DNA from: Bettongia penicillata ogilbyi
Taxonomy: Eukaryota > Chordata > Mammalia > Diprotodontia > Potoroidae
Direction: 5' to 3'
DNA length: 64,000 bases
Assembly: GCA_023548195.1 (NCBI GenBank)
Contig: JAJHZJ010000023.1
Span: 1 to 64,000 of the forward strand
Positions 2,860 to 19,749 of this stretch are shown here, in pieces; the stretch's first letter is position 1, and each line of letters begins with the position of its first letter. The notes beneath the pieces were generated by a model, which saw only the letters and a list, made by a program, of their open reading frames with translations, was not told where the DNA came from and made no database searches. The position numbers were made by a program, and so were the translations under genes.

Positions 2860-3025
2860 ATGGAGCTCATCATCCTCACTGGCTTGGCCTTCTGTCTGGT
2901 GGGCCTTTCTGGGGAGGCTAGGCTGACCGTGAGGCGGCTGACCAAGGAAGAGCCAGGAAGGAACGAGTCCACCAAAGAATCCCTGCTGCTAGCATCGGAG
3001 AGGCCTGACTTGGCTTCCCATAAAG
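2860..3025 (+). CDS. ECMX: Coding exon 1: start codon and signal peptide
   Basis: The ATG has a strong Kozak context (A at -3, G at +4). It starts a hydrophobic leader, MELIILTGLAFCLVGLSG, typical of a secretory signal, with cleavage likely after Gly18. The rest of the exon is polar and carries sequon Asn35-Glu-Ser. The exon ends in AAAG followed by donor GTGAG, phase 1. No in-frame upstream ATG competes. A strong acceptor (pyrimidine run plus CAG) ends at 2647, so the exon may begin at 2648 with a 5' UTR and a non-coding first exon further upstream. Confidence 0.85.

Positions 3026-19749: not shown

What the first reader, a model, noticed from the sequence alone, without database searches (positions are those of the whole stretch)
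2860..19749. An intact ECM2 paralogue that fits ECMX, a gene lost in humans
All nine exons join in frame to 633 residues with both cysteine caps and 14 LRRs intact. The LRR half looks too diverged from human ECM2 to be its orthologue. As I recall, the X-linked paralogue is annotated in human only as the pseudogene ECMXP, so an intact marsupial copy shows function retained in one therian branch and lost in another.
Basis: partly seen in the sequence, partly recalled or inferred. Interest (0 to 1): 0.85.

Follow-up and report, generated by a model that had tools for sequence, protein, structure and literature searches.

The report
Intact marsupial copy of ECMX gene
This is an apparently working marsupial copy of ECMX, a known extracellular-matrix gene that humans carry only as a named pseudogene; many other placental mammals also have it, so it does not mark a marsupial-versus-placental difference.

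Summary
Nine + strand exons (2860-19749) join without a stop into 633 residues: signal-peptide-like start, basic cysteine-free region, cysteine-capped leucine-rich-repeat (LRR) half. Seven introns are GT-AG, intron 4 GC-AG. A 45-row tree puts the protein with six marsupial ECMX proteins (100/100), next to tammar wallaby (100/99) and apart from ECM2 (100/100). The LRR half is 90% identical to tammar ECMX, 77% to plains zebra ECMX, 52% to human ECM2. The 15-repeat register printed for horse and zebrafish ECMX fits it without a gap.

Human ECMXP is called a pseudogene in print. But 12 placental proteins, from elephant and armadillo to zebra, cow, dog and rabbit, sit in the same clade, so any loss lies inside placentals. 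ECMX was described in 2008, opossum included. Most likely role, inferred: a secreted matrix protein whose LRR arc binds collagen or growth factors and whose basic tail binds glycosaminoglycans. Side finding: no VWC domain in 55 listed amniote ECMX rows, against 48 of 62 fish and amphibian rows. X linkage and a BGN neighbour were not confirmed.

The parts
2860..3025 (+). ECMX coding exon 1: start codon, signal-peptide-like start (MELIILTGLAFCLVGLSG)
   Evidence: residues 2-14 modelled as helix in the wombat orthologue
5390..5818 (+). ECMX coding exon 2: basic N-terminal region, probably disordered
   Evidence: pLDDT mostly under 50 in the wombat model
7270..7524 (+). ECMX coding exon 3: end of basic region, N-cap cysteines C252 and C261, LRR I and start of II
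8558..8673 (+). ECMX coding exon 4 (LRR II-III), followed by a GC donor
8674..8679 (+). GC donor GCATGT of intron 4, the only non-GT donor of the gene
9062..9194 (+). ECMX coding exon 5 (LRR III-V)
9601..9758 (+). ECMX coding exon 6 (LRR V-VIII)
12195..12334 (+). ECMX coding exon 7 (LRR VIII-IX)
18292..18618 (+). ECMX coding exon 8 (LRR IX-XIV); 327 nt, skipping it keeps the frame
19572..19749 (+). ECMX coding exon 9: LRR XIV-XV, C-terminal cap cysteines C583 and C615, stop TAG
20014..20108 (+). candidate polyadenylation signals AATAAA at 20014 and 20103
   Evidence: motif only
4244..4268 (+). possible alternative first exon (MEKTKFKD + 1 nt, then GTAAGT) inside a MIR-like stretch; 7 of 8 residues match the start MEKTKFKE of the tammar isoform X2

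Best explanation
The gene is the marsupial orthologue of ECMX, a class A small leucine-rich repeat matrix protein, in a species close to the tammar wallaby, and it is intact. Shown by computation: open frame, splice sites, 15-LRR register, cap cysteines, place in the tree, and less change in the LRR half than in the N-terminal half. Inferred: the protein is secreted, its curved LRR solenoid binds collagen and/or growth factors as in related matrix proteins, and its lysine/arginine-rich disordered tail binds acidic glycosaminoglycans, so that it ties fibrils to proteoglycan, much as PRELP is thought to work (recalled). Cartilage-like tissue is the most likely site. I put about 0.4 on this mechanism and about 0.97 on the identity.
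For: Intact frame and splice sites. Tree with window + 6 marsupial ECMX at 100/100 and ECM2 separate at 100/100; holding the window with ECM2 costs 20.4 lnL, AU p 0.0066. Repeat register of horse and zebrafish ECMX fits without a gap. In the wombat orthologue 30 of the 39 ten-residue blocks after residue 260 are at mean pLDDT 85 or more, and the best fold matches by E-value are decorin, biglycan and osteomodulin; PDB sequence hits are headed by fibromodulin, biglycan and decorin. N-terminal half changed more than the LRR half against tammar (35 of 191 v 37 of 386, Fisher p 0.005). N-terminal net charge +25 over 231 residues, LRR half -1. Human ECMXP RNA 26-fold up in stroma-rich chordoma, in the same table as COMP, MATN3 and CNMD (PMC9529962); human ECMX ESTs from osteoarthritic cartilage and chondrosarcoma (PMC2637281).
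Against: No RNA, protein or second-genome DNA could be examined, so splicing, expression and dN/dS are untested. Intron 4 needs a GC donor or a weak in-frame GT that adds five residues. BGN, the expected neighbour, is not within the 44 kb downstream. The window has 5 private changes at 227 LRR-half sites invariant in the ten other ECMX compared (tammar 0 of 222), though Tasmanian devil has 11 of 233 and Petaurus 9 of 231. Only one XBBXBX match and one near XBBBXXB match were found in the basic tail. A 2018 paper reports a Cx2CxCx6C N-cap cluster in ECMX and ECM2 (PMC6293640, passage), whereas the window, like the printed horse and zebrafish rows, shows two cysteines there.
Confidence: 0.88

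Rival explanations
1. It is the marsupial ECM2 orthologue, and the distance from human ECM2 is only fast marsupial evolution.
For: Many database records call these proteins 'extracellular matrix protein 2' or '2-like'. No marsupial ECM2 was among the 120 listed hits of the ECM2 search, so the direct marsupial comparison is missing.
Against: ECMX/ECM2 split at 100/100 with placental ECMX and placental ECM2 both in the tree; AU test p 0.0066 against grouping the window with ECM2; echidna ECM2 (P0241) groups with placental ECM2, platypus ECMX (P0007) with the window; no VWC domain in the window protein at E up to 1, whereas human ECM2 has one.
Confidence: 0.01
2. A relaxed or recently dead copy: the frame is open only because decay is young, or this is a lineage duplicate away from BGN while another copy does the work.
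For: GC donor; extra Cys501 and 5 private changes at otherwise invariant sites; BGN not within 44 kb; window branch longer than tammar's (0.066 v 0.04).
Against: 15 v 8 derived LRR changes is no significant rate difference (binomial p 0.21). LRR repeat lengths are untouched. The two length differences from tammar after exon 1 are in-frame (8 residues in all). Neutral simulation at 15 LRR changes gave a mean of 1.07 stops plus 3.02 frameshifts, and 0 disablements in 4% of 200 runs (assumed indel rate 0.1, 80% of indels frame-breaking, kappa 4).
Confidence: 0.08
3. ECMX is intact but acts mainly as a soluble growth-factor modulator (TGF-beta/BMP class) and not as a collagen-glycosaminoglycan linker.
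For: Decorin and biglycan, among its nearest solved relatives, bind TGF-beta as well as collagen (recalled).
Against: The VWC domain, a BMP-binding type of module (recalled), is the very part missing from the listed amniote ECMX rows, while the tail is basic in all 11 amniote proteins checked, window included, net +16 to +54.
Confidence: 0.2

Closest known systems
ECMX (class A SLRP; Park et al. 2008, PMC2637281; human ECMXP / LOC389904)
   Same: Tree clade, 15-LRR register of 21-24-26... residues, two N-cap cysteines, C-terminal cap cysteines; predicted opossum orthologue already reported
   Different: Window copy is from a marsupial whose protein was not in the listing (best match tammar, 86% over 91%), has an extra Cys501, two in-frame gaps of 4 residues each against tammar in the N-terminal region, and no BGN within the window
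ECM2
   Same: LRR architecture and N-cap cysteines align, long non-LRR N-terminal region
   Different: 52% identity in the LRR half; VWC domain in human ECM2, none here; human ECM2 N-terminal region net -13, here +25
Biglycan / decorin / fibromodulin
   Same: Capped LRR arc; among the best structure and sequence hits in the PDB
   Different: Solved chains of about 300-360 residues with fewer repeats and no long basic tail (recalled)
PRELP (works like, not filed as member)
   Same: Basic disordered N-terminal tail on an SLRP core (recalled for PRELP)
   Different: PRELP was not put in the tree; it is class II and its tail is proline/arginine-rich (recalled), here 31 K and 20 R

Membership tests
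ECMX (class A SLRP) | Groups with ECMX of other vertebrates apart from ECM2 | tested here: met
   100/100; AU p 0.0066
ECMX (class A SLRP) | 15 LRRs in the 21-24-26-20-24-26-21-24-26-21-25-27-23-29-27 register | tested here: met
   printed lengths laid on the window, no gap needed, 12 to 25 identities with horse in each repeat
ECMX (class A SLRP) | C-terminal LRRCE cap with its two cysteines | tested here: met
   C583 and C615 align with horse Table 3 repeats XIV-XV
ECMX (class A SLRP) | N-cap cysteines as in the printed horse and zebrafish rows | tested here: met
   C252, C261; PMC6293640 describes a longer cluster
ECMX (class A SLRP) | Lies next to biglycan (BGN) | tested here: inconclusive
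   No BGN exon by tblastn in 2.8 kb upstream or 44 kb downstream; it may lie beyond the window
ECMX (class A SLRP) | On the X chromosome in therians | not testable with these tools
   The genome search 'own' did not complete
ECM2 | Groups with ECM2 in the tree | tested here: not met
ECM2 | VWC domain before the LRRs | tested here: not met
   no PF00093 at E up to 1; no cysteine in residues 20-247
Functional gene (not pseudogene) | Open frame, splice sites, conserved register | tested here: met
Functional gene (not pseudogene) | Transcribed and spliced; dN/dS below 1 | not testable with these tools
   no RNA and no relative's DNA at hand

The most novel reading that the evidence does not exclude
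ECMX is a skeletal-matrix gene remodelled at the base of amniotes (VWC domain lost, basic glycosaminoglycan-binding tail instead) and then discarded several times (birds in print; human by its pseudogene; perhaps other primates, mouse-like rodents and cats by their absence from the listing). Marsupials, ungulates, elephants and canids would thus keep a matrix linker that humans lost but still transcribe as RNA in cartilage-like tissue.
Probability: 0.3. Interest if true: 0.45.

Novelty: new member of a known kind. Interest (0 to 1): 0.28.

Why it matters
It adds one more intact ECMX and corrects the story told about it: the loss is inside placentals, not a marsupial/placental split. Mouse and human, the usual models, may both be poor guides to this protein, because no ECMX row from primates or mouse-like rodents was among the 120 listed while their ECM2 rows were. 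Cattle, horse, dog or wallaby would be the place to test what ECMX does in cartilage and tendon.

Tried and rejected
First exon guesses misplaced several boundaries and gave frameshifted translations; they were corrected by the GT/AG rule and, for exon 4, a GC donor. An earlier belief of mine that no other nearby GT keeps the frame was wrong: a weak GT at 8689 does.

Search for BGN in the window: hits lie in ECMX's own LRR exons, plus one chance-level hit (E 0.55). Pfam on 10 chosen ORFs of the 34-64 kb part: one L1 ORF1 fragment and no host gene; ORFs of 20-34 kb were not sent. Rfam and tRNA scans: none. CpG profile in 2-kb bins: observed/expected at most 0.21, no island seen. A second ECMX copy in the window: only one chance-level hit (E 2.3).

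Regular expression for a VWC cysteine pattern: 0 of 50 amniote and 0 of 22 other rows, and it missed the N-cap in 52 rows, so it was dropped. The VWC statement rests on the Pfam column (counted by hand; 3 unnamed rows left out) and hmmscan of ten proteins. Only 25 of the 55 amniote and 12 of the 62 other rows are in the tree; rows repeat species, and some of the 62 could be other ECM2 paralogues.

Literature listings: 'ECMXP' 2 papers, 'LOC389904' 1, 'ECM2/ECMX/small leucine-rich' 41, 'ecmx' 454 with 40 listed, most of those on energy or engineering, 'ECMX/biglycan/opossum/SLRP' 12, 'extracellular matrix protein 2-like' 4 (the pupfish hit was FRAS1-related). I saw no paper on marsupial ECMX function or on ECMX loss across placentals in these listings. 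PMC13249986 (passages) found no ECMX data in the human expression, survival and interaction databases it used.

Full report
What is there. On the + strand of the window nine exons (2860-3025, 5390-5818, 7270-7524, 8558-8673, 9062-9194, 9601-9758, 12195-12334, 18292-18618, 19572-19749) join to 1902 nt coding 633 residues and a TAG stop, with no internal stop. Seven of the eight introns are GT-AG. Intron 4 starts GCATGT; of the six GT dinucleotides up to 8720 five would break the frame, and a weak one at 8689 (GTTCCC) would keep it and add five residues inside LRR III. The GC donor is preferred because it leaves LRR III at the 26 residues of horse and zebrafish. The start codon lies in GAGACCATGG, and AATAAA signals follow at 20014 and 20103. 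The protein has a signal-peptide-like start, about 230 residues without a cysteine and with net charge +25, then a leucine-rich repeat half with C252/C261 at its start and C583/C615 near its end. Pfam sees only LRR families.

What it is. In a tree of 45 hand-picked rows cut mostly to the LRR half (386 columns kept), the window and six marsupial proteins form one group (100/100). The window and tammar wallaby are sisters (100/99), and marsupial plus placental rows are joined at 100/99, then come platypus, reptiles, amphibians and bony fishes. One shark row, Heterodontus, is the outermost on this side; since ECMX is reported lost in cartilaginous fishes (PMC11917481) it may be ECM2L, which the tree does not otherwise hold. 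All seven ECM2 rows (six placental, one echidna) stand apart at 100/100. Holding the window with ECM2 costs 20.4 log-likelihood units, AU p 0.0066. No marsupial ECM2 was among the 120 listed hits, so none is in the tree. LRR-half identity is 349 of 386 with tammar, 333 of 386 with wombat, 306 of 386 with platypus, 296 of 386 with plains zebra (Equus quagga, P0010) and 198 of 383 with human ECM2. Laid on Table 3 of Park et al. 2008 (PMC2637281; section 14 read, other passages), the window takes the same 15 repeat lengths as horse and zebrafish ECMX without a gap. The species is not given. The tree says a marsupial nearer to tammar than to wombat, Petaurus or the others sampled, at a distance (91% over the tree's columns) that makes the same species unlikely.

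Is it alive? After exon 1, length differences from tammar are two in-frame gaps, 8 residues in all, in the basic region. The basic region changed more than the LRR half (35 of 191 against 37 of 386 sites, Fisher p 0.005), as expected if the LRR half is constrained. Using LRR sites where Dromiciops and wombat agree, 15 changes are private to the window, 8 to tammar, and at 23 sites both differ; 15 against 8 is not significant (p 0.21). A neutral simulation at 15 changes met no stop or frameshift in 4% of 200 runs, and at 25 changes in 0 of 200, under assumed indel and transition rates. Against this stand the GC donor, an extra cysteine (501), and 5 private changes at 227 sites invariant in the ten other ECMX compared (tammar 0 of 222, devil 11 of 233, Petaurus 9 of 231). 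dN/dS and RNA could not be had. I judge it functional.

The human gene is printed as a pseudogene (PMC9529962, one passage; PMC12519442 lists ECMXP only by name). But the zebra-ECMX search lists 27 named placental rows, 14 of them covering 99-100% of the query, the query itself included: equids, Hipposideros, Myotis, camelids, ruminants, hippopotamus, two whales, canids, two elephants, armadillo, rabbit, Chinchilla and Dipodomys. Some are partial or oddly named models (for example 'biglycan-like', 'podocan-like'). Twelve of them were put in the tree, and all 12 fall in the ECMX clade. So the placental ancestor had ECMX, and marsupial against placental is not the line of loss. No primate, mouse-like rodent or cat is among those rows, although all three have ECM2 rows. 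This suggests losses there but does not prove them: only 120 of 479 hits are listed and cluster members are not named, and Park et al. report predicted orangutan and macaque orthologues and were unsure whether the odd repeat structure of the human prediction was real. Birds are reported to lack ECMX (PMC11917481, passages). The 2008 paper already names predicted opossum, bovine, horse and dog orthologues, and six other marsupials are in the database.

How it probably works. The wombat orthologue was modelled from an alignment of 49 database sequences: mean pLDDT 70.9, 30 of the 39 ten-residue blocks after residue 260 at 85 or more, and residues 17-252 mostly under 50. The best PDB fold matches by E-value are decorin, biglycan and osteomodulin; by sequence fibromodulin, biglycan and decorin come first. 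ECMXP RNA is 26-fold up in stroma-rich chordomas in the same table as COMP, MATN3 and CNMD, and human ESTs came from osteoarthritic cartilage and chondrosarcoma, which points to chondroid matrix as the home of the gene's regulation. From this I infer a secreted linker: the LRR arc on collagen or growth factors, the basic tail on sulphated glycosaminoglycans. That step is inference, about 0.4.

A side result. The precomputed Pfam column gives a VWC domain (PF00093) in 0 of 55 named amniote rows and 48 of 62 named non-amniote rows (3 unnamed rows left out; counted by hand; 25 and 12 of these rows respectively are in the tree). hmmscan agrees on ten proteins: VWC in coelacanth, newt and gar ECMX and human ECM2; none at E up to 1 in wombat, devil, platypus, zebra, lizard and turtle ECMX. 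The net charge of the N-terminal region was +16 to +54 in ten amniote ECMX and +25 in the window, against -13 in human ECM2. I saw no mention of this domain loss in the passages seen: Park et al. leave the N-terminal part out of Table 3, and PMC11917481 has no hit for VWFC or von Willebrand. Other papers were not searched for it.

What could not be settled. BGN, the usual neighbour, is not within the 44 kb 3' of the gene or the 2.8 kb 5' of it, and the window's own genome could not be searched. X linkage therefore rests on orthology alone.

Noticed in passing
4237-4278: A MIR-like SINE in intron 1 (score 17 against a recalled MIR piece; 500 base shuffles reached at most 13) holds an ATG (4244) and a GTAAGT donor; 7 of 8 residues match the start of the tammar isoform X2 (MEKTKFKE), so a SINE may serve as an alternative first exon without a signal peptide.
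   Followed up: partly
ECMX homologues: VWC domain (PF00093) listed for 48 of 62 non-amniote but 0 of 55 amniote rows; the amniote N-terminal regions checked are basic instead.
   Followed up: partly
P0006 (Petaurus ECMX model), against window 18292-18618: The Petaurus model lacks the stretch of the in-frame exon 8 (LRR IX-XIV): an assembly gap, exon skipping or a real loss.
   Followed up: no
8674-8679: GC donor in intron 4 of an otherwise GT-AG gene; a weak in-frame GT lies at 8689.
   Followed up: partly
window protein residues 253, 441, 501: Window-derived changes create two N-glycosylation sequons (N253, N441) and one extra cysteine (C501) in the LRR half.
   Followed up: no
43461-43934, 50072-50434, 61433-63080: Retroelement relics: an L1 ORF1 dsRBD match (PF17490) in the first; the other two look like L1 ORF2 and RTE reverse-transcriptase pieces by eye only, without a Pfam hit at 0.01.
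   Followed up: partly
20000-64000: No host gene was recognised in the 44 kb 3' of ECMX; BGN, expected next, is not in it. Only ten ORFs of the 34-64 kb part were sent to Pfam.
   Followed up: partly
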